DNA from: a virus
IMG/VR virus record: IMGVR_UViG_3300030108_001985
Location: 1-24,175 of that record
DNA length: 24,175 bases
Strand: one strand, 5' to 3'
Shown: positions 7,654-21,664 of the stretch, in pieces
Numbering within the stretch: the stretch's first letter is position 1
Layout of the letters: each line of letters begins with the position of its first letter
Made by a program: the position numbers and the translations under genes
The notes under the pieces: model-generated
The model's input: only the letters and a program-made list of their open reading frames with translations
Told to the model about the DNA's origin: nothing
The model's database searches: none

Positions 7654-8126
7654 TAGTCATCCCCTTTATGACTTGCGCCAAAGTAAAAAGATATTATGGC
7701 ACTAGCGAGTCCGCCTAGGTAACCAAGCACCAAGTTAATTAGTGCCTCACTATTTTGTTCTGGTGGTTGTAGCGTTACTAAAAATATATAACCTAAAAAA
7801 CCAGCTATTGTGGCAATACCTATGATTCTAGCCGTCCAATCTTTGCTAAACATACTTCTTGCGTTTTGTTTGTCCTCTGTTTCCAGCTTGAAGACATCAA
7901 CATCCAGTTCTTTCATTTTTACTTTAAAATCTTGTTCGGCTTGTTTTATCTGCATCATTTGCTCAGGCGTAGCATTTTGTATCGCAGTTTGTATGTCTTT
8001 AGGATTATTAGCACATCCCAACACTTCTGAAATCATGTTGCCTGCCATGCCTCCCATCGGGCCACCTAACGCTGTTCCTATTGTAGGAGCTACCTGTCCT
8101 AATATCCCTTTTATTAAATTTTTCAT
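7653..8126 (-). CDS. Holin, three-TM gene-transfer-agent type
   Basis: This is a 157-residue protein. It begins with a glycine-rich hydrophobic segment (about residues 5-37), followed by a soluble charged helix (about 45-95) and two strong membrane spans (about 101-118 and 129-149) that end in a short charged tail. This layout matches the GTA_holin_3TM family as I know it. Holins form inner-membrane holes that let a cytoplasmic endolysin reach the wall, and the endolysin gene is two genes downstream. The start ATG overlaps the stop of the cyclase gene (ATGA at 8123-8126), so the envelope cassette upstream and lysis are translationally linked. Confidence 0.75.
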   Translation of the reverse strand: MKNLIKGILGQVAPTIGTALGGPMGGMAGNMISEVLGCANNPKDIQTAIQNATPEQMMQIKQAEQDFKVKMKELDVDVFKLETEDKQNARSMFSKDWTARIIGIATIAGFLGYIFLVTLQPPEQNSEALINLVLGYLGGLASAIISFYFGASHKGDD

Positions 8127-9880
8127 ATTTTTTCCTTAACAGTATAAATCGTTAATTTATCTTTTTTACCTTTTACATTTATAGGTTTTAGTAATTTTAA
8201 TACAATTTTACAATTTTTTGCAGTTTGATCTCCAATTAAGATATCCACACCAACTTCTTTGGTTGCCGACTCTAGCCTAGCAGCCGTATTTACAGGATCT
8301 CCAATAGCAGAATAATCAAACCGAGTTTCAGATCCCATATTACCTATAACTGCATATCCAGACTGACAGCCAACGCCTACTGCAACCGGGGTAGATAATG
8401 TTTTGTTCAGTTCGGCTATGCCTTTTTGTATATCTATTGCAGCTTGGACCGCTTTGGTTTCGTGATCTTCACAATCTAAGGGCGCTCCAAAAATGAACAT
8501 CCCTGCATCGCCGATGAATTTGTCTGTCATGCCACCTAACTTTTGCACTGCGTTTACCTGCACAGTCAAAGTTTTATTCATTATGCTAGTCACCTCCTCT
8601 GGCGGCAACTCTTCACTTAACGCAGTAAAACCTCTTAAGTCGGTAAATAAATAACTACAATATTTTTTTTCACCACCTAACTTCAAAAGCTCTGGACTTT
8701 TTTGTAGCCTAGCCACTTGTCTAGGGTCGAGGTAATGCTCAAACTGTTTTTTTATTTGCTGACGTAATAAATACTCTTTTCTAAAGCGTAAATAGAAAAT
8801 AACGCTGCCAACAACAAATTCTGACACTAAAGTCCATGAAAAATCTAATAAAATCCCATTTTTTATGCTAAAAACGCCTAAGAAGCCTGTCATGGCCATG
8901 AAAACAACGCCGAAGGCTAATGCCTTGGTCATGCTAAGATATGCGCATACAAGTGAAACTGTGAGCACAAAAATTGCAAAAATCAAAATTTCGGCTGCTA
9001 ATGCCCAATCTGGTATTTTTGGAGAATCTTGGATCAAAATTGACTCAGCTAAAGCTGCTTGAACTTTGTGTGGGCCAAGCAAACCAACAGGAGTTGCAAC
9101 TTGCGGCATAACACCTGGAGCATCCACAGAAACAAAAACAAATTTACCATCGACATTCATTTCGTCTAGTGTGGTTTCTGGAGTTTTTACCCAACTAATC
9201 CATTTTCTGCCTAAGCGGTCAACATCAACTGGCGGTAATCCTTGCACAGTTATTTGTTGCATGCCATTTTCATCGCCTTTAATTATGTAGGTATTAGCAC
9301 CTGCCAAAACTTTTAAAACCTCTGTACCATAAGAAGAAACAAAACCGTCTGGTGTTTGCATTAACAATGGTAGCCGTCTTACAAGATTATCAACTTCGGA
9401 GGGAGCTGATGACAGACCTTGGGGGATATACATGAATTGTTGGCTGTTCGTGACAACTCCCTTAGCCATAATACCACTTATGTTTTCACCAAGTAAAACA
9501 GTTCCGCTGGTTTTCGGATAAAAGCCATTATCATATTCAAACATAGCTAATACGCTAGGACTGTAATTTAGTGCTTCTAGAAACACATCATCACCACCAA
9601 AACGATCTGCTTGAGGAAACGATACTACCCAACCAACTCCTATAGCTCCAGCATTTAGCAAATCAACATGTATTTGTGCAAGCTCTTGTCTTGGAAATGG
9701 CCAACCGCCAGATTTAAAAATATCTTCTTGCGTTATATTGAGAATTGCAAAGTTGCCACTAGGCTCATATTCTTTAACAAAAGCATCAAAGGTTTGTAGT
9801 TTTAAGATCTGTAAAGGATATGACTGAAATACTAATGGCAACAATAGTATTATAAATACTGTGAATATTACCTTTTTCAT
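8123..9880 (-). CDS. CHASE2-domain class III adenylate/guanylate cyclase
   Basis: This is a 585-residue membrane receptor cyclase. It has an N-terminal anchor (about 4-18), a CHASE2-type extracytoplasmic sensor (about 22-285), three closely spaced membrane spans (about 294-316, 320-337, 344-364), a linker containing HYLDP, and a C-terminal class III cyclase domain (about 405-585). Metal-binding aspartates are present in FTDLRGFT (D414) and FIGDAG (D458), substrate lysine K454, and transition-state N531 and R535 in GDPVNTAARLE. The residue at the second purine-selecting position is Ser (S524), as in Thr/Ser-type (IIIb) enzymes, so cAMP is the likelier product. It starts in an ATGA overlap with the FecR-domain gene, suggesting a sensor pair. 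A cyclase of this type is unexpected in a phage. Confidence 0.93.
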   Translation of the reverse strand: MKKVIFTVFIILLLPLVFQSYPLQILKLQTFDAFVKEYEPSGNFAILNITQEDIFKSGGWPFPRQELAQIHVDLLNAGAIGVGWVVSFPQADRFGGDDVFLEALNYSPSVLAMFEYDNGFYPKTSGTVLLGENISGIMAKGVVTNSQQFMYIPQGLSSAPSEVDNLVRRLPLLMQTPDGFVSSYGTEVLKVLAGANTYIIKGDENGMQQITVQGLPPVDVDRLGRKWISWVKTPETTLDEMNVDGKFVFVSVDAPGVMPQVATPVGLLGPHKVQAALAESILIQDSPKIPDWALAAEILIFAIFVLTVSLVCAYLSMTKALAFGVVFMAMTGFLGVFSIKNGILLDFSWTLVSEFVVGSVIFYLRFRKEYLLRQQIKKQFEHYLDPRQVARLQKSPELLKLGGEKKYCSYLFTDLRGFTALSEELPPEEVTSIMNKTLTVQVNAVQKLGGMTDKFIGDAGMFIFGAPLDCEDHETKAVQAAIDIQKGIAELNKTLSTPVAVGVGCQSGYAVIGNMGSETRFDYSAIGDPVNTAARLESATKEVGVDILIGDQTAKNCKIVLKLLKPINVKGKKDKLTIYTVKEKI

Positions 9881-10998
9881 CCAGAACTTTGTTTTATAGT
9901 TATAACCGATGAAGATGTGCCATTGATTTGAACTGTTTTTGTAACTCCGTCTTGTATAAAGATAACCGTGTAAGAATCATCACCATCCACTAAAACTTGC
10001 GCGTTTTGATTAACCATGCGCATTAGCTTTACTTGGTTGCCTTGAATAATCGTTGTAATCTGTGTTTCTAGGTCTTGCCCAAAGTTAGTGCCTACTAGCT
10101 GAACACCGTTAGAAAAGTTAGTTAGTTGGTCTTCTTCCTCTTTTATGCCTAGCTCATCTAATACGTCTAGTAGGTTTTCAAAAAAGTCTGTCGCTAGGTA
10201 ATCTATATCTAGCTCCGAAAAAGACATGTCCTCTTCCTCTTCCAAAAAGTCTTCTGCTAGCGCATCTATTTCCAAATCTGTAAATTCCAAATAATCTGAC
10301 TGTTCGCCCTGTTGTTGTTCCTCATTGATGACTTCTTCTTTAGGTGGCGAGACAATAAGCATGTTGTCAATAAAATTAAGATCTATGTCTAAAGTTATTG
10401 GTTTAGTTGGTGCTTTCTCATACATGGAAGTGGTGGTAGCCTGATAAGGTTGATTAAGTAAAGTCTGCCCAGCTGCGGTTTGCACCACAATCTCACCGCT
10501 AGCATTACCAAATTCATCCGGGAGTAAAATTACGAGTGCCTTGCCCAGAAGATCAACGGAACACACAAAATCTGTGCCTTGCACAAAAATTTGTGAAGTG
10601 GGTGTAGATAGCGTAATGTTTTTCTTATTTAGTTTATTTGCGTTACCACTGATAAACCGTATTGTGCCACTAGCAAACTGTAAAGCCATTTTAGATTTGT
10701 CGGGGTTGCTGTTGAAGACGTATTCGTCTATAAGAAGATTGCTATGCTCTGTAAGTTTTACAGTAGATTCATCAAGGAATGTAATGGCAATGCGGCCAGC
10801 AGAGGTTTCGACATTATCTAACGAGTTAATGTCAAAATCCAACTCAGCAGCAAAAGTCTCGTCTCTTACAACTCTGCCGTATCCTTTTAATTCAGTAATA
10901 TCTCCTATCGCATCAGCATGAAGTGGTGGTGCCACCATCATTTTGAACGACGCAAATATTAGAATTTGAAGAATTAGTTGAGATGGATAACCAATCAC
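9877..10998 (-). CDS. Secreted FecR-domain protein with acidic repeat and beta-rich C-terminus
   Basis: This 373-residue protein begins at a GTG at 10998. That start adds a hydrophobic signal-like N-terminus (LILQILIFASF) with a possible cleavage after HADA (about residue 30); ATG codons at 10941 and 10938 would lose it. Residues about 60-155 form a FecR-type beta domain (ETSAGRIAITFLDEST, then ASGTIRF and STPTSQIFVQGTDF). Residues 241-257 and 261-278 are an acidic duplication (DLEIDALAEDF and ELDIDYLATDF). The last 60 residues are short beta strands with N/G turns. FecR domains act in the periplasm in signalling. The gene overlaps the curlin-like gene upstream by 86 bases and the cyclase downstream by four. 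Confidence 0.82.
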   Translation of the reverse strand: MIGYPSQLILQILIFASFKMMVAPPLHADAIGDITELKGYGRVVRDETFAAELDFDINSLDNVETSAGRIAITFLDESTVKLTEHSNLLIDEYVFNSNPDKSKMALQFASGTIRFISGNANKLNKKNITLSTPTSQIFVQGTDFVCSVDLLGKALVILLPDEFGNASGEIVVQTAAGQTLLNQPYQATTTSMYEKAPTKPITLDIDLNFIDNMLIVSPPKEEVINEEQQQGEQSDYLEFTDLEIDALAEDFLEEEEDMSFSELDIDYLATDFFENLLDVLDELGIKEEEDQLTNFSNGVQLVGTNFGQDLETQITTIIQGNQVKLMRMVNQNAQVLVDGDDSYTVIFIQDGVTKTVQINGTSSSVITIKQSSG

Positions 10999-11638
10999 GA
11001 GCTAAAGTTGAAGATTGAGTGATGTCTAGCGTGTTATTGCTGCCATCAAGATCTAAATTAAAATAACCAGAATCAGATGCTGTAGTACCAGAGTATCCAC
11101 TAGCAGTAAAATTTATTGTGTTAGTGCTGCCGTTTATGTCCATATAGTTGACTGCGTTTTCATAATCTATATCAAAGTCAAACACGTTAGAATCACCAGT
11201 GATAATCCAATCTAAATTAAGATAGGAGGAGTCAGCGTTTTCTGCTATTTTGATATCTGCCTCATTACTAGATCCTGTAACGTCAATATTAAGGTCGACA
11301 TAATCAGCTGTAATTAAGCCTGTAGAGTTCATTAACAAGTCCCAAACATTGCTATCGCCATCAAACTCAAAAAAACCAGTAAAGTTATCGCCGTCAATAC
11401 CGTCAGATCTAAAGACGTTTGAAGATCCTATTTGATTGATGTCAAGTGTCATTGACACACCGTCGAGGTCCATTGCGGTCATCGATGTTGTAGTGGCGCT
11501 AGTGCCGCCGATAAGGTTTGAAGAGCCAAGCTGTTCTAGATCTATAGTAGCTGAGTTCCCAGTTTGATCTACAAAGATTTCGTTGTCTGCAAAAACAGTT
11601 GTGCTAAACAATAAAAAAAACAAGAGTTTATTCATCAT
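10913..11638 (-). CDS. Secreted curlin-like repeat protein, candidate curli subunit
   Basis: This is a 241-residue protein with a clear signal peptide (MMNKLLFFLLFSTTVFA, cleavage near residue 17). The rest is low in Lys and Arg, rich in Asp, Asn, Ser, Gly and Thr, and carries about eight degenerate repeats centred on G-[SD]-[ST]-N: EQLGSSN, NQIGSSN, FDGDSN, VTGSSN, ITGDSN, INGSTN, LDGSNN and NSSNSN, spaced 22-33 residues apart and each flanked by alternating hydrophobic residues. CsgA/CsgB repeats have Q-x-G-x-x-N at their core, so this looks like a strand-turn-strand amyloid subunit. Two cysteines (C229, C241) close the protein. It overlaps csgG by 11 bases. The curlin call rests on repeats, signal peptide and neighbours. 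Confidence 0.75.
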   Translation of the reverse strand: MMNKLLFFLLFSTTVFADNEIFVDQTGNSATIDLEQLGSSNLIGGTSATTTSMTAMDLDGVSMTLDINQIGSSNVFRSDGIDGDNFTGFFEFDGDSNVWDLLMNSTGLITADYVDLNIDVTGSSNEADIKIAENADSSYLNLDWIITGDSNVFDFDIDYENAVNYMDINGSTNTINFTASGYSGTTASDSGYFNLDLDGSNNTLDITQSSTLARDWLSISTNSSNSNICVVQNDGGTTTSC

Positions 11639-12473
11639 AATATTCCCAAAAATTTCGTTCGCGCCCTTGTTTTACAATATCTACGATACCAATTTCTATA
11701 GCTGATTGCAAAGCGATGGACTTACTTTCATTCATGGCATTTCCCGTTTCAAACTCTATTAACTCAGTAGAGTTATTAGTAAACCTAAATACATCGCTAG
11801 AAATACCAACTGATAAAATAGTTCTGGTCGTCAAGTTTTCTAATAAGATCTCGCCAGTGCTTACGGATACAACTCTTATTGAAACCAAAACAGTATCCTC
11901 CCGGTATTGTTTAGATCTCCCGATCCCGAGCGTTCTGGCGCCCGCGCCGCCTGTGCGTAGATTTGTGTTGTAATCTACAATACCACCTTCGATAATAAGG
12001 CCCGCGAAGAGTAACGGCAATTGTTCTGTTTCATCCTCAAACTTCTCACGAGTCGATCTAATTATTTGGCGCTCACGAGTGATGTGATCTATATTTACGC
12101 GCTCGACCACACGAAAAAAACCAGATTGTTTTAGAGCTCTTATTAGATAAGTCTCAGGTGCTTGCGTCATTGCTGTGCTGAAATTTGCATAACCGTCTAC
12201 TGATTTTCTTTGTCCAGTGAAGTCGCCAAACTTATAAACAGCAACTATGGGTTGATCTTTAGGTTTAGGAATATTAAGTATTTCTTGCGTTATCGGCAGA
12301 TTAATAAAAGCGTCTTTGGAAAAACATTGAGCTTTGCCAACAATGGAGACAAGGTCTTTGTAATCTCCTTCGGGGTTAGTTAGACATGGTGATATTAATT
12401 TAGCGTGCGAAGAGCAACTAATTACCAAAGCCAAAATCGCCGATTGGCACAATAATTTCAGTAGTCGTTCCAT
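11628..12473 (-). CDS. csgG: CsgG-type curli secretion pore lipoprotein
   Basis: This is a 281-residue homologue of CsgG, the nonameric outer-membrane channel that exports curli subunits. A lipoprotein signal ends in VISC (lipidated Cys20). The conserved core begins near residue 75 (IVAVYKFGDFTGQRK). It includes GYANFSTAMTQ, in which N97 and F98 align with the N55/F56 eyelet residues of E. coli CsgG, then ERQIIR, LIIEGGIVDYNTNLRTGG, GARTLGIG and RVVSVSTGEIL, each matching the E. coli protein closely. It has about 50 extra residues between lipobox and core. It overlaps csgF by 56 bases and the curlin-like gene by 11. The GGAGARTLGIG codons (about 11918-11957) are unusually GC-rich. Confidence 0.95.
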   Translation of the reverse strand: MERLLKLLCQSAILALVISCSSHAKLISPCLTNPEGDYKDLVSIVGKAQCFSKDAFINLPITQEILNIPKPKDQPIVAVYKFGDFTGQRKSVDGYANFSTAMTQAPETYLIRALKQSGFFRVVERVNIDHITRERQIIRSTREKFEDETEQLPLLFAGLIIEGGIVDYNTNLRTGGAGARTLGIGRSKQYREDTVLVSIRVVSVSTGEILLENLTTRTILSVGISSDVFRFTNNSTELIEFETGNAMNESKSIALQSAIEIGIVDIVKQGRERNFWEYYDE

Positions 12474-12912
12474 CTAAAGTATTAAAAATAGTTAGGGTTA
12501 TGTAAGTCCCGTCGCTGGACCAACTGATTATGTTATCAAATAAAGTAAAAGATCCTGTCGTCTCCGGGTTCTCACCAAATAACTGTTCCACGATCTGTCT
12601 GCTGATTTGTGCAAAGATGCGTGATTCTAGGTTTTTAGTGAATCTTGAAATTACTGAGTTCTCTTCGTCTCTTTTTCTTTGTTCTTCTAAGGCTTTTAAG
12701 TCAGCTTTTAATTGTTCTTTCCGTGAAAATTCTTGTTGTTCAATCGTAAGATAGTGTGCTGAGGTACCAATTCCGCTGAAAGATGGAGACTTAAAGTTAA
12801 ATTTAATTTCGTCTGCTCTCAGATTTGTAGCAAATATACCTACAAATAAAACCAATGCCCAAACAATTATTATTTTGTAATGTAGTGGTAAATTAATCTT
12901 TTCTTTGGTCAT
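12418..12912 (-). CDS. csgF: CsgF-type curli assembly factor
   Basis: This is a 164-residue homologue of CsgF, which plugs its N-terminal peptide into the CsgG channel from outside and helps nucleation. A signal segment (about residues 11-30) ends near LRA|DE. The predicted mature start, IKFNFKSPSFSG, aligns with the channel-binding start of E. coli CsgF (TFQFRNPNFGG). A helical charged middle (about 60-110) precedes the C-terminal beta part (TYITLTIFNTLDGTTTEIIV, about 135-154), equivalent to the end of CsgF. The gene overlaps csgG by 56 bases and the upstream membrane-protein gene by 20. In E. coli csgF also precedes csgG. Confidence 0.92.
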   Translation of the reverse strand: MTKEKINLPLHYKIIIVWALVLFVGIFATNLRADEIKFNFKSPSFSGIGTSAHYLTIEQQEFSRKEQLKADLKALEEQRKRDEENSVISRFTKNLESRIFAQISRQIVEQLFGENPETTGSFTLFDNIISWSSDGTYITLTIFNTLDGTTTEIIVPIGDFGFGN

Positions 12913-14140: not shown

Positions 14141-17100
14141 TTAATCCTCCTTTAAGGTTTGTATTTCGGCTTTTAATTCATCTACCTGGGTAGACAGTTC
14201 TTGTACTGCTTTGACCATTATAGACATCATAGCTGATGGTGCAATTCTTTGCCTTCCATCTGCTTCATCTTCTGACCACATATCAAAGCCTTCTTTTAAA
14301 TTGTGATTATCAATCACTTCTTTAACTTCTTGTGCTATAAAGCCATGATTATATTTACCATTCATTGTTCTTGCTTCTGAATCTTCTTTATAAGCTTTCA
14401 TATCCGGTGGTATATCTTTTTCTTTTTTCCAAAGGAAAGTTACAGGTCTTAAATCATTTACAAAATCTAAACCTACTTCTTCGTCTTGTATATCTTCTTT
14501 TAGTCTTACATCTGATGGTGCTGTTATAGAAGTTGCACCAAAAGCAATATTAGAATCTGTAGTGCCATCACCAAATGTAAAGTTACTATTACCAACACAG
14601 GTAACATTTTGTCCCATAACTATTTGATTAGCACCATCTGCAGCTGATAAAGATGTATCAACACCGATAGCAATATTTTGTTGACCAGTAGTTAAGTTAT
14701 CAGCAGCATCATGCCCTATAGCTATATTGTCGTCACCAGAAGTTAAAGACCCAGCTGATACTTGTCCTAATAAAGTATTTTGTTCGCCTGTAGTTACGTT
14801 AGTACCTGCTGATTTACCTAAAGCAGTATTATTATCAGATGTAGTTAATGAGGCTAAAGCATCCTTTCCAATAGCTGTATTAGCACTTCCAGTACTTGCT
14901 GTTGATAAAGCAGTCCTACCAAGTGCTACGTTATTAGTGCCTGTAGTGTTTGCTGTTAAAGATTTATAACCAACTGCTGTGTTATTAGAAGCTGTGGTGT
15001 TAGCATCTAAAGCATCAACACCTATAGCAGTATTGTTTATACCAGTTGTATTTACACCTAAAGCAGCATAACCATAAGCAGTATTATCATCACCTGTAGT
15101 GTTAGCATCTAATGCTACACTACCCATAGCAGTATTCCTTGTACCTGTGGTGTTTGCTTCTAAAGCTTGATAACCTATAGCAGTATTATCGCTAGCTGTA
15201 GTGTTAGCACTTAATGCTGCTCTACCAACAGCTACATTATTGCTCCCTGTAGTATTAGCATCAAAAGCATAAGTACCGACTACTACATTTTTTTCACCAG
15301 TAGTATTAGCAGTACCAGCATCATATCCGATTGCTGTATTGTCGTTAGCTGTAGTATTAGCGTCTAGAGATAAAGCTCCAACTGCTACGTTTCTTGTGCC
15401 TGTAGTGTTTACTTCTAATGCCTTATATCCAACACCTACATTATTAGAAGCTGTAGTATTACTTTCTAGTGCTTCAGAACCTAACGCTGTATTTTGTGTT
15501 CCTGTAGTATTCGTATTTAATGCATGAAAACCAACTGCTACGTTATTAGTATCTGATTCTGAACTAGGGTCTTGTGCGGCTAATGAAGCATATCCAACTG
15601 CCGTACTCCTGCTACCATCTACATTCGCAGTAAGAGCATTTCTTCCTACTGCTACATTGTATTGTCCTATAGTATTAGCATCTAATGCTGCTGAACCAAC
15701 TGCTGTATTTTCAGCACCTGTGGTGTTTTTATCTAAAGTTCCTGCACCTATAGCAGTATTATTTGCACCTGTTGTGTTGGCTGATAAAGAACTAAAACCA
15801 ACAGCTGTATTGTTATTAGCTGTTGTATTAGCATCTAAAGCACCAGTACCAACAGCTGTATTTTGATTACCTGTAGTATTTACTAACAGAGCATTACCAC
15901 CTATAGCAGTATTGTTTTTACCTGTAGTATCTGCTTCTAGAGCAGCATAACCTACTGCTACGTTATATGAATCTTCGTTACTAGAAGGGTTGTAAGTTTC
16001 TAAAGCTGAATAACCTATAGCTATGTTTCTATCACCCACAGTATTAGTGTTCATAGCTTGACCACCAATAGCTATATTAGTGTTACCTGTAGTTAAAGCA
16101 TTAGCAACATTTTTACCTACGGCTATATTATCTGAACCTGTTGTGTGATTTTCTAAGGCATCTGTACCTACAGCTACGTTATTAGTACCAGTAGTGTTAC
16201 TCGCTAAAGCTCTTTTACCAACAGCAACGTTAGCACTTGCTGTCGTGTTTGCACTTAGAGATTGATAACCTATAGCTGTGTTATTACTTGCGGTAGTGTT
16301 AGCATCAAGTGCAAAAGAACCAACTGCTGTATTTGAATTTCCAGTAGTAATTGATACACCTGCAAAATATCCCACCATAGTATTATCATCTGGTGAGTTT
16401 GCTACATTTAAAGCTCCAAAACCAAGCCCTGTGTTCCTGTTACCATCTACATTAAGTTTTAATGAGTCTTTACCAATAGCAGTATTAGAATGACCTGTTG
16501 TATTCGCTCCTAGAGAATCTTTACCTATTGCTGTATTGCCATCCGCAGTTGTATTAGCATCTAAGGCATTACTACCTAAAGCAGTATTATTAGCACCTGT
16601 AGTGTTTGTTAATAAAGCATCTTTACCGACAGCAGAATTACTAGCTCCCGTAGTGTTTGCTCTTAAAGAATGTTTTCCGACTGCTGTGTTACTTGATGCT
16701 GTAGTATTAGCATGTAAGGCTTCTCTACCTATCGCAACATTAGATGAACCTGTAGTGTTATCTGCAAATGCCTCACTTCCAACTACTGTATTTAAATTAC
16801 CTGTTGTATTAGCTCCAGCAGCACCTTTACCAACTGCGGTATTTTCATCTGCTGTGGTGTTAGCATCTAGTGCAGCTTGACCTATTGCTGTATTACTTGC
16901 ACCTGTGGTGTTTACTAACATAGCATTAGTGCCTACTGCTGTATTATTAGATGCAGTAGTAGTGGCAGTAGCAGCATTAACTCCAATACCTGTATTTGAG
17001 GCACCTGTAGTCATTTGTGCTAAAGCTTTTCTACCTATAGCAGTATTATTAGTGCCTGATGTTAAATCATCTAAAGCTTCAAAACCAAAACCTGTATTGT

Positions 17101-18511
17101 TAGAGGCACTAGATAAAGTTCCTGTACCAGCATCTTGGCTGATAAGTAAACTTTCACTAAAGTTAGTGGCGTTAGATAATATACCTGCACCATTGATTGT
17201 GCCTGTAACGTCTACACCAGAACTTGTTGTTTCTATTTTTTTACTATTATCGTGATATAGTTCGACAGCACCATTTTCAGCAGCTAAAAATAATATTTCA
17301 TTTAAAGCAGGATTTTTTATTGATAAAGAATTACTAGCAAGAGTAAGTCCACCTGTTCCAGAATCAACTATAAAACTATCTGAGCCATCGTGAAATATTT
17401 TTAAATCATCACCAGCTCCAAAAACAGCTAATCCATTATCACCAAGTTTTATATCGTGATTAAAGGTTGCAGTACCAGCATCTGACATATCAAGGGTAAG
17501 GGCAGTTATTTCACTACCACCATCATTACCTAAAAACTTTAAATCATCATCTGAGCCTTCAGATTTAATAACAAAATTACCTGAAATATTTCTTAAACGA
17601 CCTATAGAGCTTCCAGCATCTTTAAATACTACATCTCCACCATCAGCATCAAGTGAAATGTCTCCTACAGCATCAATTATAAAATCATCTGTAGCTGTAA
17701 TAGTATCACCATCAATAGTCATTTCATCTACTACTACACCTGCGTTTGCAGTTACAACACCACCTACAGCTAAAGTAGAAGCCATATCTACAGCTCCATC
17801 TATATCTACTACATCTAGATTAGTAGTACCATCTACGTCTATATCACCAGATATGTCTAGTGCGGTACCAATAAGAGTTTGTGAAAAAGTGACTTGTCCG
17901 TTAGAAGCTATAGTCATAGCGTCTACATCAGAGGCAGATCCTATAGTTTTACCGTCACCAATAATTAAATCATCAGTAAGTGTGACTATACCTGTAACTC
18001 CTAGTGTGCCACCAATAGTCATGTCATCTGTTACTGTAAGATCGTCTGAGATAGTTAAATCATCAACTGTGGTAGTACCACCTAGATTTAGATTAGTAAA
18101 AGCATCTACTATAGCTGCGCCAGAGCCAGCTCCGTCTGAATACACAGCTTTTACATGACCTGCTGGGATCGTGACATTAGCGCCAGATCCTTGCGAAATA
18201 ATGATGTTTTGTGATCCTGATGTGCCGTTTTCAATAAACCATAGTTTAGATACGGTATTTGGGCCTATTGTTATGGTGCAAGCTGAATCAAGTGTACCTG
18301 TATATTTTAAATAAATAGATCTGCCTGGATCAGTAGAGCCGTCTGCAATAGTGGTGGTGTGAGTATCTGCGTTGGTTGTTATAGCCTCTGTACCAAAACT
18401 AAACGCCTCAGCAATTAGCTCTAAATTGGTGTTTGTTTCTGTTCCCCAGGTACCAGAAGATTCACCAGTACCAATTTCTTTTAATCTTAAATCATTTGTA
18501 TAAGCTGCCAT
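14141..18511 (-). CDS. Giant tail fibre/adhesin with 17-residue repeats and S74 self-cleaving chaperone
   Basis: This is a 1456-residue protein. Residues 1-150 are a virion-attachment-type head (TNDLRLKEIGTGESSGTWG). Residues about 150-300 alternate short DDLTVTDD/GGTLGVTG strands typical of trimeric fibres, and a beta-rich stretch follows. From about residue 470 to 1300 there are some 48 copies of a 17-residue unit with consensus NTAIGxxALxANTTGxx, like the YadA-type head roll. The end is a peptidase S74 intramolecular chaperone: S1333-DVRL-K1338 gives the Ser-Lys cleavage dyad, and HGFIAQEV follows. Cleavage before S1333 would release 124 residues, including a terminal coiled coil, after trimer folding. 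The role is host recognition. The many antisense open frames here are shadows. Confidence 0.88.
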   Translation of the reverse strand: MAAYTNDLRLKEIGTGESSGTWGTETNTNLELIAEAFSFGTEAITTNADTHTTTIADGSTDPGRSIYLKYTGTLDSACTITIGPNTVSKLWFIENGTSGSQNIIISQGSGANVTIPAGHVKAVYSDGAGSGAAIVDAFTNLNLGGTTTVDDLTISDDLTVTDDMTIGGTLGVTGIVTLTDDLIIGDGKTIGSASDVDAMTIASNGQVTFSQTLIGTALDISGDIDVDGTTNLDVVDIDGAVDMASTLAVGGVVTANAGVVVDEMTIDGDTITATDDFIIDAVGDISLDADGGDVVFKDAGSSIGRLRNISGNFVIKSEGSDDDLKFLGNDGGSEITALTLDMSDAGTATFNHDIKLGDNGLAVFGAGDDLKIFHDGSDSFIVDSGTGGLTLASNSLSIKNPALNEILFLAAENGAVELYHDNSKKIETTSSGVDVTGTINGAGILSNATNFSESLLISQDAGTGTLSSASNNTGFGFEALDDLTSGTNNTAIGRKALAQMTTGASNTGIGVNAATATTTASNNTAVGTNAMLVNTTGASNTAIGQAALDANTTADENTAVGKGAAGANTTGNLNTVVGSEAFADNTTGSSNVAIGREALHANTTASSNTAVGKHSLRANTTGASNSAVGKDALLTNTTGANNTALGSNALDANTTADGNTAIGKDSLGANTTGHSNTAIGKDSLKLNVDGNRNTGLGFGALNVANSPDDNTMVGYFAGVSITTGNSNTAVGSFALDANTTASNNTAIGYQSLSANTTASANVAVGKRALASNTTGTNNVAVGTDALENHTTGSDNIAVGKNVANALTTGNTNIAIGGQAMNTNTVGDRNIAIGYSALETYNPSSNEDSYNVAVGYAALEADTTGKNNTAIGGNALLVNTTGNQNTAVGTGALDANTTANNNTAVGFSSLSANTTGANNTAIGAGTLDKNTTGAENTAVGSAALDANTIGQYNVAVGRNALTANVDGSRSTAVGYASLAAQDPSSESDTNNVAVGFHALNTNTTGTQNTALGSEALESNTTASNNVGVGYKALEVNTTGTRNVAVGALSLDANTTANDNTAIGYDAGTANTTGEKNVVVGTYAFDANTTGSNNVAVGRAALSANTTASDNTAIGYQALEANTTGTRNTAMGSVALDANTTGDDNTAYGYAALGVNTTGINNTAIGVDALDANTTASNNTAVGYKSLTANTTGTNNVALGRTALSTASTGSANTAIGKDALASLTTSDNNTALGKSAGTNVTTGEQNTLLGQVSAGSLTSGDDNIAIGHDAADNLTTGQQNIAIGVDTSLSAADGANQIVMGQNVTCVGNSNFTFGDGTTDSNIAFGATSITAPSDVRLKEDIQDEEVGLDFVNDLRPVTFLWKKEKDIPPDMKAYKEDSEARTMNGKYNHGFIAQEVKEVIDNHNLKEGFDMWSEDEADGRQRIAPSAMMSIMVKAVQELSTQVDELKAEIQTLKED
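14620..17110 (-). repeat. 51-bp coding repeat array in the tail-fibre gene (about 48 units)
   Basis: Roughly 2.5 kb of in-frame units of 51 bp, each coding 17 residues of the NTAxG...NTTG type, with a few longer units. Units share protein motifs but differ in codons, so the array is old or diversifying rather than freshly copied. It is coding throughout, without CRISPR-like conserved repeats and unique spacers. Borders and copy number were judged by eye. Confidence 0.8.
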
Positions 18512-18529: not shown

Positions 18530-19381
18530 TTATGCCGCGTCCCTACCTGCTTTTATATTAGTATAATTGGGAGATTGACTTGTCGCAACCTCTGAATAGC
18601 TAGCAGTTTGTGAGGTTGAAACCTCGCTAAAGCTAGGTGTTTGCGATGTGCTAACCTCTGCATAGCTTGCTGTTTGTGTGGTGGAGATTTCTGCAAAGCT
18701 TGCATTTTGGTCAGTGTCTATCTCTCCATATACTAAAATAAAGCCGGGATTAGTTGTTATATCAACACCTGTGATATTAACATCAGCTGCTGCCGTTGGA
18801 CTAATCGCGCCAACGCCACTGTTAGATGCTTGCCCTGTAAGCTCTAAGGTTATGCCAACGTTAATAGTAGGCGTGCCTAGTTGCGATGTAGCAACTTGCG
18901 AATCTGGTGTTACATTGGCCGCAGCATTGGTAGTTACAGATCCTGAACTTGCGGTAATTACACCAGCCGTTGACACAGTTGTATTTGCATCTGCTGTCGG
19001 TGCTATAGATCCTACAGCACTGGTGGCAGCTTGACCTGTTGGTATGATGTTGGCTTTCCCGGTTACGGTCAGAGAGCCAGTGCTTCCTGTGGCTGCAACT
19101 CCCGTAACTGAAACATCAGCTGCTGCGGTAACACTTGGAGCTCCTAAGCTAGTGTTTGCGGCTGTGCCACTGACTTGTACTATGGCTGCGGCAATAACGG
19201 AGGGTGATCCAGTCGATGCTGTGATCGATTGACTTGCCGGGGTGACGTTAGCTTTAGCTACTACGCTGACTGAGCCAACCGCAGAAGTTATGACGCCTAC
19301 GCTAGATAAGTTTACTGGTAAGACGCTTCCCCACGCACCTTCTCCCCAGGATCCTCTACCCCAGCCGTTGATGTTGGCCAT
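18530..19381 (-). CDS. Repetitive tail/structural protein (283 aa)
   Basis: The N-terminus carries tandem WGRGSWGEGAWG. The middle (about residues 25-215) is an Ala/Thr/Ser/Val-rich beta array of about 24-residue units (VGSxxVxAxANVxxxG). The end has four to five 11-residue units of the type ASYAEVSTSQT. No charged catalytic motif, signal peptide or membrane span is present. Position before the giant fibre gene suggests a tail or fibre-base component. It starts at an ATG overlapping the stop of a 46-residue gene (TAATG at 19379-19383). Function is inferred from context only. Confidence 0.65.
   Translation of the reverse strand: MANINGWGRGSWGEGAWGSVLPVNLSSVGVITSAVGSVSVVAKANVTPASQSITASTGSPSVIAAAIVQVSGTAANTSLGAPSVTAAADVSVTGVAATGSTGSLTVTGKANIIPTGQAATSAVGSIAPTADANTTVSTAGVITASSGSVTTNAAANVTPDSQVATSQLGTPTINVGITLELTGQASNSGVGAISPTAAADVNITGVDITTNPGFILVYGEIDTDQNASFAEISTTQTASYAEVSTSQTPSFSEVSTSQTASYSEVATSQSPNYTNIKAGRDAA
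18554..18703 (-). repeat. 33-bp tandem repeat at the end of the 283-aa tail-type gene
   Basis: Four full units and a partial fifth, each coding 11 residues (ASFAEISTTQT, ASYAEVSTSQT, PSFSEVSTSQT, ASYSEVATSQS, then PNYTNI). Nucleotide similarity between units is high, so slippage could alter copy number without breaking the frame. Confidence 0.75.
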
Positions 19382-19521
19382 TAGCTTAAGTTATCTCTTA
19401 CTGCAACTAACAAAATCTTAATATTATTAAGATCTGCGCGCACCGGATCTGTCATAAAATCAAGTGTAAGCATGGAGTCAATAGTAGCTATAGCGCTAAT
19501 AATTTTTTCTTTATCGGTCAT
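19381..19521 (-). CDS. Small phage protein (46 aa)
   Basis: An ATG at 19521 opens a 46-codon frame ending in TAA at 19381-19383, where it overlaps the ATG of the 283-residue tail-type gene. The product (MTDKEKIISAIATIDSMLTL at its start) is predicted helical and soluble. It begins three bases after the stop of the gene before it, fills the only gap in this stretch, and keeps the tight-packing pattern of the operon, which is the main support. Function unknown. Confidence 0.5.
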   Translation of the reverse strand: MTDKEKIISAIATIDSMLTLDFMTDPVRADLNNIKILLVAVRDNLS

Positions 19522-19523
19522 AA

Positions 19524-19709
19524 TTAGTCATATCTTGATAAGACATTTTTTACAATATTACGATAAGCTCGTGATTTGGACGCTATATCTGCATCTTTTT
19601 CTTCTTTATCGTAATCAAAGACCAGTGTCGGTGAAGATGTCTGCTGTGTCTTCGAAGATTTTTTTAGGCTCGCCAACCCTCGTAGTCGTGTCGATTTTTC
19701 CATAACCAT
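19524..19709 (-). CDS. Small basic protein overlapping the zeta-type gene (61 aa)
   Basis: The frame begins inside the zeta-toxin-like gene, 95 bases before that gene ends, with a strong AAGGAGGG ribosome-binding site (about 19719-19726) that argues for real translation. The first residues are MVMEKSTRLRGLASLKKSSK; the rest is charged and helical. It could be an accessory to the zeta-type kinase, but it does not look like a typical acidic helical epsilon antitoxin. Function unknown. Confidence 0.5.
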   Translation of the reverse strand: MVMEKSTRLRGLASLKKSSKTQQTSSPTLVFDYDKEEKDADIASKSRAYRNIVKNVLSRYD

Positions 19710-20799
19710 CTGCTATTCCCTCCTTTCTAAGTTTATTATAAGTTATACTTTGTTTACCTCTATTAGCTAAGGCGTAATCTGACGGAATCAGTCTGCCCTT
19801 TCTAATAAATCTATCATTCATTCTAATCAATGCTAAATCAGGATCTATTTCTGTTAAAACCAAATTCACCCTATAGCCTTCGTTTTTTAAATTATTTGTT
19901 AGTGTGCGTATCGCATCAGTATCATTACCAACTTTAGGTAAAACTAAATTGTCGCCTCTTGCAATGGCTGTTTCCATCACTTTGTTGGATAAAATTTTAG
20001 ACTCGTGGTGCGTTGCATTAGATCCGATTCCGCCTTGGTATTCGGGTAGTATTTTTTTTGATTCATCAGCATCAATTATTGTGGCTTTGTTTTTAATTGC
20101 GATAGGATTAGATATTCTGCTTTTGCCCGCTGCTGGTGGACCTATTACTATCGTAGCCGACTTTTCACCTGTATTTTTTGCCATAACATTTATAGGTATA
20201 GCCAAATTTTCTTCTCGGTATGCTAAAGTTCTGCCACCTTTGTAAAGCTCATCAACTGCATCGTCATAACCTGTTACTGATTTACCTGCAATGTTAAATT
20301 TTCTGTTTTTAACAAAGTCATCGGTGCCGTATCCCGGCATATCTCTTGTTAGTGGCATGTCTTCCATAGCTTTTGTTGCTTGTACCACCGCAGGGTGGTT
20401 TTTAGCTTGTTCTAATTTGTTTGCGTTTGATAACTTAGGATCATCAAGTATTTTTTTAAGATCCAACATATCATCATCTAAGCTAACAATACCGCTTTTT
20501 AGCGCTTGTTTACCTGGTCTAAATAAATCGCCAATCAACGGTAAAGCACCAAGGGTTGAGAGTCCGGCGATACCCGCATACATTAGGCCAGGTTTGATAT
20601 TGCCTGCTCTAAACTCTTCGACTGCATCGCGGCCGTATTTACCACCAGCCGCTAAATCTGCTGCCATTCCGGGTGGTGTAAAACCAGCTGCTATTTGTGC
20701 GAGTAAAGGCACATTCTCTTCGTAGCCTTCAACCACTCGATCTAAGAGATCTTTGTCAGCTGCTCCACCTTGTTGGAATATGTCAATATTTTGATACAT
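19615..20799 (-). CDS. Zeta-toxin-fold kinase with phage-type N-terminal region
   Basis: This is a 394-residue protein. Residues about 210-394 match the zeta toxin/PezT P-loop fold: Walker A GPPAAGKS (220-227), DADES (243-247), THHESK (263-268) and the arginines of IRMNDRFIRKG (R326, R330, R333). Zeta toxins phosphorylate UDP-N-acetylglucosamine and block wall synthesis. The first 200 residues are separate: residues 36-105 (GFTPPGMAADLAAGG, then a hydrophobic GIAGLSTLGALPLIGDLF) resemble the pre-toxin segments of polymorphic toxins and internal proteins of marine phages. No epsilon-like antitoxin adjoins it. A TATAAT at 20806-20811 sits just before the ATG. Enzyme fold is well supported; substrate and purpose are not. 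Confidence 0.75.
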   Translation of the reverse strand: MYQNIDIFQQGGAADKDLLDRVVEGYEENVPLLAQIAAGFTPPGMAADLAAGGKYGRDAVEEFRAGNIKPGLMYAGIAGLSTLGALPLIGDLFRPGKQALKSGIVSLDDDMLDLKKILDDPKLSNANKLEQAKNHPAVVQATKAMEDMPLTRDMPGYGTDDFVKNRKFNIAGKSVTGYDDAVDELYKGGRTLAYREENLAIPINVMAKNTGEKSATIVIGPPAAGKSRISNPIAIKNKATIIDADESKKILPEYQGGIGSNATHHESKILSNKVMETAIARGDNLVLPKVGNDTDAIRTLTNNLKNEGYRVNLVLTEIDPDLALIRMNDRFIRKGRLIPSDYALANRGKQSITYNKLRKEGIADGYGKIDTTTRVGEPKKIFEDTADIFTDTGL

Positions 20800-20805
20800 T
20801 CCATG

Positions 20806-20833
20806 ATTATAACTGAAACGCTAACTTTTTCTA
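20806..20833 (-). promoter_or_regulatory. Sigma70-like promoter before the zeta-type/tail operon
   Basis: Read leftwards, TAGAAA (20833-20828) is followed after 16 bases by a perfect TATAAT (20811-20806). The -35 match is 4 of 6. Transcription would begin near 20799, which is the ATG of the zeta-type gene, so the message could be leaderless. It overlaps the stop codon of the recombinase gene. Confidence 0.4.
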
Positions 20834-21664
20834 TTAGCTAACCTCTCCGTAACCAATGTCATATTTTTGATCTTCCATGTCAAGCAAGCCTTGGAACTTA
20901 CGTTTTAGAATCCTGTGGACCTTGTGATACGGAAAATCCTCATAGCCGGGATGTGAACTTTGAATCTGTTTAGCTATCTTCCTTGCACCTAAGCCTTTGG
21001 CTCTAAGTGCATAAATATGTTTTAAAACTTTTTGCTCCTCTGGTATAGGCACTAGCTTGGTTCTGCGTCTGCTACCAGATCCATCGTATTCTTTGCGATA
21101 ACCAAACGGCGTTTTACCGCCAATAGAATAGCCTCTTTCTGCATAGACGAGTTTGCCGCCGTTAAGTCGAGACATAATCATTTCTCTCTCCATGGCCGCA
21201 AACCAAGCAAGCATGGTAACCAATTGATTGTTAGCCATTCTGGTTAAATCCATTTTTGCTGCCAATCCTGTTTTTTCTTTTGCTTTCGGTAATACCATCG
21301 GCACATCACCGAACATATCGCAAAAATACAACGTAATACCAGTCTCCTCCAGATCGGGAACCATGTTAATCATCTCAAGAGGTGATCTGGCAATACGGTC
21401 GAGCTTAGTTGCCACTATCACATCGTTGGCGTCCATCACGTCAGTCAGCTCTCTAGAGCCTGGTCGCTCTAATAATGGCTTCATGCCACTAATGCCAGCG
21501 TCGGTAAAGAACTTGTCAACTTTCCTGCCGCCGTATTTGTTAGCGACAAACTCCTCAATCGATCTTTTTTGCTCCTCAAGTGAAGAGCCGTCTTTGACCT
21601 GTTGCTCAGACGATACTCTGATATAGCCGTAGATATGGTTTACTTGTTTTCTTGGTTCAATCAT
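20834..21664 (-). CDS. Serine recombinase (resolvase/invertase catalytic domain)
   Basis: This is a 276-residue site-specific recombinase. The catalytic domain begins YGYIRVSSEQQ with nucleophile S18, has the active-site arginines R16 and those of KLDRIARS (R90, R93), and ends in the long E helix (AAMEREMIMSRL). A short DNA-binding part with helix-turn-helix character follows (GLGARKIAKQI, about 224-234). It is longer than a Gin/Hin invertase (about 190) and shorter than large serine integrases (450 or more). It could integrate the phage, invert a segment or act like an IS607-type enzyme; no attachment site or inverted crossover pair was found. It starts in an ATGA overlap with the gene before it. 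Confidence 0.88.
   Translation of the reverse strand: MIEPRKQVNHIYGYIRVSSEQQVKDGSSLEEQKRSIEEFVANKYGGRKVDKFFTDAGISGMKPLLERPGSRELTDVMDANDVIVATKLDRIARSPLEMINMVPDLEETGITLYFCDMFGDVPMVLPKAKEKTGLAAKMDLTRMANNQLVTMLAWFAAMEREMIMSRLNGGKLVYAERGYSIGGKTPFGYRKEYDGSGSRRRTKLVPIPEEQKVLKHIYALRAKGLGARKIAKQIQSSHPGYEDFPYHKVHRILKRKFQGLLDMEDQKYDIGYGEVS

What the first reader, a model, noticed from the sequence alone, without database searches (positions are those of the whole stretch)
19615..20799. Zeta-toxin-fold kinase fused to a pre-toxin-like, membrane-active-looking N-terminus
The C-terminal half has the zeta/PezT motifs. The N-terminal half has a hydrophobic segment ending in PLIGDLF, like pre-toxin regions of polymorphic toxins. 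The gene opens the tail-type gene series rather than a plasmid-addiction pair, and no usual antitoxin is beside it. It may be a virion-packaged effector injected into the cell, aimed at wall precursors.
Basis: partly seen in the sequence, partly recalled or inferred. Interest (0 to 1): 0.6.

Follow-up and report, generated by a model that had tools for sequence, protein, structure and literature searches.

The report
Swappable-toxin phage protein with zeta kinase
A marine virus of bacteria carries a gene whose front end is fixed in its relatives while the back end is exchanged between different toxin-like enzymes (here a zeta-type kinase, elsewhere an alarmone-synthetase-like domain), with a second small gene hidden in another reading frame at the kinase's tail; this is the layout expected of a weapon that the virus delivers into its host.

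Summary
Window 19615-20799 (-) encodes 394 aa; residues about 149-387 form a zeta/PezT-type kinase (Pfam 7e-16; fold match to zeta, Z 16.9). No known pre-toxin domain was found, but the N-terminus behaves like the constant part of a polymorphic toxin. In relatives with 95% identical flanking DNA, homology stops at codon 107 and resumes just after the gene; the cassette between is replaced by a RelA/SpoT-like module, sometimes with an ART-like or other insert. 31 viral contigs share the N-terminus, with at least five C-terminal layouts. Related zeta modules also sit after a portal gene, after a DNA-ejection gene, or inside a ddrB-ParB polyvalent protein: virion-gene contexts. A 61-aa ORF overlaps the kinase 3' end in the +1 frame and travels with it; synonymous change there is 0.19-0.28, against at least 0.41 in every upstream window. 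Haloarchaeal viruses show a similar +1 ORF. An RF2-like frameshift idea was tested and dropped. UDP-GlcNAc as target is doubtful: the Glu essential in zeta (E116) aligns with an invariant Pro. Verdict: a non-MuF, polyvalent/MuF-like polymorphic phage effector; delivery and toxicity are inferred, not shown.

The parts
19615..20799 (-). effector gene, 394 aa: constant N-terminus plus zeta-type kinase
20485..20799 (-). constant N-terminal region (residues 1-105; invariant motifs around YE.NVPLL.QI, TP.G, KYGRD, GIA.LS, P..G.L)
   Evidence: alignments A1 and A4; 31 viral contigs share it; no Pfam or significant PHROG hit
19522..20478 (-). exchangeable cassette: zeta kinase plus overlapping ORF, replaced by a non-homologous RelA/SpoT-like module in relatives with 84-95% identical upstream flanks
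   Evidence: blastn window vs L008, L005, L006, L007, L009
19639..20355 (-). zeta/PezT-fold kinase domain (residues 149-387); Walker A GPPAAGKS with K226; D243/D245; R326, R330, R336 invariant
19524..19709 (-). overlapping +1-frame ORF, 61 aa (P0004), starting inside the kinase gene, preceded by AAGGAGGG; candidate immunity or companion protein
19381..19521 (-). 46-aa ORF (MTDKEKII...) present behind both zeta and RelA/SpoT-like alleles, so not a cassette-specific immunity gene
   Evidence: sequence
20834..21664 (-). serine recombinase gene directly upstream (34 bp gap)
   Evidence: Pfam Resolvase 2.1e-26; phrog_95 integrase 1.7e-43, phrog_125 invertase 2.5e-31
18530..19381 (-). GWGRGSWGEGAWG repeat protein, next gene in the tail-type series
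   Evidence: conserved beside both allele types; no significant family hit
14141..18511 (-). tail spike/fibre with S74 chaperone domain
   Evidence: Pfam Peptidase_S74 2.2e-12; phrog_4636 tail spike

Best explanation
The gene encodes a polymorphic, probably virion-carried effector of a pelagiphage-like virus. A constant ~105-aa N-terminus docks the protein in the virion or ejection machinery; this step is inferred from gene context. An exchangeable C-terminal cassette supplies an enzyme that acts in the newly infected cell. In this window the cassette is a zeta-superfamily P-loop kinase that uses ATP to phosphorylate a small host metabolite (a nucleotide-sugar or another nucleotide compound); in sister phages it is a RelA/SpoT-like alarmone synthetase, sometimes with an ART-like or other insert. 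Phages exchange cassettes by homologous recombination in the flanking DNA. The 61-aa +1-frame ORF that overlaps and travels with the kinase is most likely a cognate partner (immunity or chaperone) for the producing cell. Shown here: the domain, the cassette swap, the dual-frame constraint, the virion-gene contexts. Inferred: packaging, injection, toxicity, substrate, recombination route, partner function.
For: Kinase: Pfam 7e-16, fold Z 16-17 to zeta/PezT, Walker A Lys, Asp and Arg invariant. Swap: window vs L008 95.3% identical over recombinase and codons 1-107, no homology across 957 bp, then 93% identical from 2 nt after the +1-ORF stop; same borders in L005-L007 and L009. Alternatives: RelA_SpoT Pfam E 0.0017-0.04 in eight relatives; all ten PDB matches with E <= 0.001 of the RelA/SpoT-like model are alarmone synthetases, including the toxin Tas1; ART-PolyVal 0.0034. 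31 contigs share the N-terminus. Virion context: after the portal gene in L031 (phrog_1216, 4e-153), after a DNA ejection protein gene in L004 (5.2e-13), inside a 1204-aa ddrB-ParB polyvalent protein followed by a virion structural protein in L076, after gpF/MuF or head-assembly genes in HCTV-1 and HVTV-1. Overlapping ORF: synonymous change 0.19-0.28 vs at least 0.41 in all 222 upstream windows. Iyer 2017 (PMC5512222) lists zeta, RelA/SpoT and ART domains in polyvalent/MuF proteins.
Against: No virion proteomics or toxicity data. In the window's own lineage the gene sits between a recombinase and tail genes, not next to the portal, so virion location is inferred from other lineages and gene order. 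The RelA/SpoT and ART assignments are below Pfam gathering scores, and the L016 model is poor outside residues 208-334. The E116 equivalent is Pro, which could mean a different substrate or weak catalysis. No immunity gene is demonstrated.
Confidence: 0.62

Rival explanations
1. Intracellular takeover enzyme: the protein is made after infection (not packaged) and remodels host nucleotide or alarmone metabolism; the swap reflects host adaptation.
For: Cassettes are all nucleotide enzymes by assignment (zeta kinase, RelA/SpoT-like, ART-like). The gene is directly downstream of a recombinase gene. No packaging data.
Against: Module relatives lie after portal genes, after ejection-protein genes and inside ejected-type polyvalent proteins. 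The gene is on the strand of the structural genes. Similar domain sets are proposed to be injected in Iyer 2017 and Jamet 2017.
Confidence: 0.22
2. Superinfection exclusion or abortive module: the kinase and its overlapping small ORF act as a toxin-antitoxin pair that protects the phage-infected or lysogenic cell from rival phages.
For: Zeta plus a tightly linked small ORF resembles a TA pair; the recombinase suggests a possibly temperate phage.
Against: The constant phage-specific N-terminus is shared with non-zeta cassettes; no PADLOC match of note; the partner lies at the 3' end rather than upstream as in epsilon-zeta and PezAT.
Confidence: 0.1
3. On the small ORF only: it is not a separate gene but a C-terminal extension made by ribosomal frameshifting, as with RF2 (CTT TGA).
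For: CTT TGA TTA is conserved in window, L002, L026-L028, L030/31 and L033; Listeria phages use +1 shifts for tail proteins (PMC5009743).
Against: In L029, L032, L034 and L035 the kinase frame does not stop there, yet the same +1 ORF is kept. The overlap itself is dual-constrained. No AGGGGG element or +4 C as in prfB (PMC12421855).
Confidence: 0.2

Closest known systems
MuF polymorphic toxins of temperate phages (Jamet 2017, PMC5576092; Apk2, PMC12226406)
   Same: Constant phage N-terminus with exchangeable C-terminal enzymes including RelA-like and ART domains; small ORF behind the gene; hypothesised loading in the head and injection.
   Different: No MuF domain found; different N-terminus of about 105 aa; zeta kinase cassette; partner ORF overlaps the toxin in the +1 frame; virus related to pelagiphages.
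Polyvalent proteins (Iyer 2017, PMC5512222)
   Same: The same domain types: zeta-like kinase, RelA/SpoT, ART-PolyVal; the relative L076 is a ddrB-ParB plus zeta polyvalent protein.
   Different: Short (394-618 aa), few modules each, swapped as alleles at one locus rather than accreted into one large protein.
Zeta/PezT toxins of epsilon-zeta and PezAT systems
   Same: Fold (Z 16-17), Walker A Lys, Asp and an Arg.
   Different: No epsilon or PezA antitoxin; E116 equivalent is Pro; fused to a phage N-terminus; partner ORF at the 3' end.
AvrRxo1 (zeta-fold NAD kinase effector with partner AvrRxo1-ORF2)
   Same: Zeta-fold effector (Z 14.0) with a small partner protein.
   Different: Type III effector of a plant pathogen, only a fold match; cited as a precedent for a zeta-fold kinase with a substrate other than UNAG (PMC5491322, abstract).

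Membership tests
Zeta/PezT kinase superfamily | Zeta_toxin domain above the curated score | tested here: met
   PF06414 58.7 bits vs 22.3
Zeta/PezT kinase superfamily | zeta fold | tested here: met
   1gvn Z 16.9, rmsd 2.9 over 199; 2p5t Z 16.0
Zeta/PezT kinase superfamily | Walker A Lys, catalytic Asp, Arg of the ATP site (K46, D67, R158 in zeta) | tested here: met
   K226, D243/D245 and R330 invariant and aligned to PezT
Zeta/PezT kinase superfamily | second ATP-site Arg (R171 in zeta) | tested here: inconclusive
   R336 is invariant but no printed alignment places it on R171
UNAG-phosphorylating zeta toxin | Glu of the IEGT motif (E116), essential and UNAG-contacting (PMC6356619) | tested here: not met
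   aligned residue is an invariant Pro in VLPKVG
UNAG-phosphorylating zeta toxin | UNAG kinase activity | not testable with these tools
   needs an enzyme assay
epsilon-zeta / PezAT toxin-antitoxin system | upstream epsilon or PezA antitoxin gene | tested here: not met
   upstream gene is a serine recombinase
MuF polymorphic toxin | N-terminal MuF domain | tested here: not met
   no Pfam hit in residues 1-105 at E <= 1
MuF-like polymorphic toxin (works like) | constant N-terminus with exchangeable toxin-type C-termini | tested here: met
MuF-like polymorphic toxin (works like) | small ORF linked to the toxin cassette | tested here: met
   +1-frame ORF inside the cassette; immunity function not tested
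Polyvalent protein | domains typical of the class in an invasive element | tested here: met
   zeta; related zeta in a ddrB-ParB protein; RelA_SpoT and ART-PolyVal sub-threshold in relatives
Polyvalent protein | transferred into the host with the DNA | not testable with these tools
   needs virion proteomics or an injection assay
Pre-toxin domain proteins | a Pfam pre-toxin domain | tested here: not met
   no such hit at E <= 1

The most novel reading that the evidence does not exclude
The zeta kinases of phage and archaeal-virus polyvalent proteins form a lineage of injected toxins whose partner protein is encoded in the +1 frame on the toxin's own 3' end: an overlapping toxin-partner cassette, exchangeable as a unit and shared in layout by pelagiphage-like viruses, an alphaproteobacterial prophage and haloarchaeal tailed viruses, acting on a metabolite other than UDP-GlcNAc.
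Probability: 0.25. Interest if true: 0.75.

Novelty: new variant of a known kind. Interest (0 to 1): 0.6.

Why it matters
It extends phage polymorphic toxins beyond the MuF scaffold to marine viruses whose large terminase is closest to pelagiphages, and shows the cassette exchange with nearly identical flanks on both sides. It names a defined locus where different nucleotide-acting enzymes replace one another, so the question of what virion-borne toxins do at the start of infection can be tested. The overlapping +1 ORF is a concrete candidate partner that ordinary ORF calling would miss or misread.

Tried and rejected
RF2-like +1 programmed frameshift at CTT TGA: proposed from conserved CTTTGATTA, dropped as necessary because relatives without that stop keep the same +1 ORF. 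Pre-toxin domain homology: none. MuF domain: none. The 46-aa downstream ORF as immunity protein: rejected because it is the same behind both cassette types. Relation of the N-termini of L004 and L031 to the window's: not found (hhalign). A wide cellular reservoir: 1 relative in genome contigs, 1 of 394 genomes of that family. A folded model of the +1-read-through protein could not be submitted (tool rule). PDB sequence search with the RelA/SpoT-like alignment gave nothing at E <= 0.01, though fold search did. A ParB-like region in L059, L064 and L066, seen by eye, got no supporting Pfam match.

Full report
What is there. The ORF at 19615-20799 (-) is real: 394 aa, ATG start, in a same-strand series of tail and head genes. 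Pfam finds Zeta_toxin at 7e-16 over residues 211-348. An AlphaFold model from nine relatives (mean pLDDT 68.5; mostly 70-95 from residue 107 on, below 50 before it) matches zeta of epsilon/zeta (Z 16.9), zeta with substrate (16.7), PezT (16.0) and the zeta-fold effector AvrRxo1 (14.0) over residues 147/149-387. Walker A K226, D243/D245 and R326, R330, R336 are invariant. The Glu of the zeta IEGT motif, essential for toxicity and ATPase activity and in contact with UNAG (E116, PMC6356619), lies in PezT opposite an invariant Pro of this family; that PezT's Glu corresponds to E116 is my knowledge of the family. So the ATP site looks intact, but the substrate is not settled by the name 'zeta'.

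Virus. The window is an IMG/VR record of 24,175 bases. Its large terminase is 60-62% identical to marine phage 023Pt_psg01 and Pelagibacter phage HTVC027P. The window carries a CsgG-like gene (1.2e-44); curli secretion genes are reported in HTVC023P-type pelagiphages (PMC9599517). The host is not shown.

Swap. Relatives found with the whole protein and then with its N-terminus share a ~105-aa N-terminus, but their C-termini differ. Of the 31 contigs, by my reading 9 carry zeta, 11 RelA/SpoT-like alone, 3 RelA/SpoT-like plus an ART-PolyVal-like insert, 2 RelA/SpoT-like plus another insert, 3 another region before the RelA/SpoT-like module, and 3 are too short. DNA comparison places the borders. 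Window and L008 are 95.3% identical through the recombinase and codons 1-107, then show no homology for 957 bp, then are 93% identical from two bases after the stop of the +1 ORF; L005, L006, L007 and L009 give the same borders within a few bases. The replaced stretch therefore contains the kinase and the +1 ORF, and nothing else. L018 against L016 and L019 shows a clean gain or loss of the ART-like insert.

Alternative cassettes. RelA_SpoT (PF04607) is a sub-threshold Pfam hit (E 0.0017-0.04) in L016, L019, L018, L064, L066, L059, L053 and L061; it was not reported for L005-L008 or L063. The L016 model is poor overall (pLDDT 35.6) but about 50-84 over the module, and its ten PDB matches with E <= 0.001 are all alarmone synthetases, among them the type VI toxin Tas1. 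ART-PolyVal matches at 0.0034-0.013. MuF toxins with RelA-like and ART domains are described (PMC5576092, PMC12226406), and zeta, RelA/SpoT and ART domains are listed in polyvalent or MuF proteins (PMC5512222).

Context. Zeta modules related to this one also lie on other proteins: L031 directly after a portal gene (phrog_1216, 4e-153), L004 directly after a DNA ejection protein gene (phrog_26400, 5.2e-13). A 41% identical zeta in a Rhodobacter MAG lies in a 1204-aa ddrB-ParB polyvalent protein followed by a virion structural protein. More distant zeta proteins follow gpF or head-assembly genes in HCTV-1 and HVTV-1 and lie in a 'minor head protein' of cyanophage PSS2. This supports, but does not prove, a virion-borne protein.

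Overlapping ORF. P0004 (19524-19709, -) begins inside the kinase gene in the +1 frame. I first took it for an RF2-like frameshift product, because CTT TGA TTA is conserved. That failed: in L029, L032, L034 and L035 the kinase frame has no stop there, yet the same small protein is kept. In the overlap, synonymous change is 0.19 (0.28 with L030 included) against means of 0.54 (0.52) and minima of 0.44 (0.41) in 222 upstream windows; L026 vs L029 gives Fisher p = 3.5e-6. Pairs of L030 with the other four carriers of the CTT TGA stop do not show the reduction. Behind the overlap, changes concentrate on the third position of the +1 frame in every divergent pair tested. L076 shows +1-frame third-position GC of 0.89 over 162 nt there. 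In the haloviruses HCTV-5 and HVTV-1 a +1 ORF behind zeta changes at codon positions 1, 2, 3 by 1, 1, 12, so it is a coding frame. I read these as overlapping genes; similarity between the three groups' small proteins is not shown. PSS2 shows no such ORF. An immunity role is a guess by analogy with MuF toxins.

Judgement. Shown: kinase fold, cassette exchange, dual coding, virion-gene neighbourhoods. Inferred: packaging, injection, toxicity, substrate, partner role.

Noticed in passing
window 10913-12912: Curli (type VIII secretion) genes: CsgG-like at 11628-12473 (NCBIfam 1.2e-44), CsgA/B-like repeats at 10913-11638 and a CsgF-like ORF at 12418-12912 by eye; such genes are reported in HTVC023P-type pelagiphages (PMC9599517).
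   Followed up: partly
window 8123-9880: CHASE2 plus adenylate/guanylate cyclase protein (1.7e-20, 1.8e-18) in a phage structural/lysis region, next to a FecR-like ORF (9877-10998, by eye).
   Followed up: no
L005, L007, L008, L018, L054, L059-L061, L063, L064, L066: 3' end of the RelA/SpoT-type genes: A 75-80 codon antisense ORF (e.g. MEKETLYFGWEDGPAV...LPAVT in L054) is open in all 11 lineages compared; that frame shares its third positions with the sense frame, so conservation does not tell which is real. No homologue found.
   Followed up: partly
L023 5686-5793, L078 3156-3263, L079: In haloviruses HCTV-5 and HVTV-1 (and by eye HCTV-1) a +1-frame ORF lies inside the annotated zeta gene; substitutions 1/1/12 by codon position show it is coding, so the annotated long genes may be misread there.
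   Followed up: yes
window 14141-18511: S74 tail spike with many NTAVG/ALxxNTT-type repeats.
   Followed up: no
window 20805-20816: TCAGTTATAATC, a TATAAT-like block just upstream of the effector start; the reading FSYNH/FSYNY of this stretch is also kept before the gene in L026, L027 and L053.
   Followed up: no
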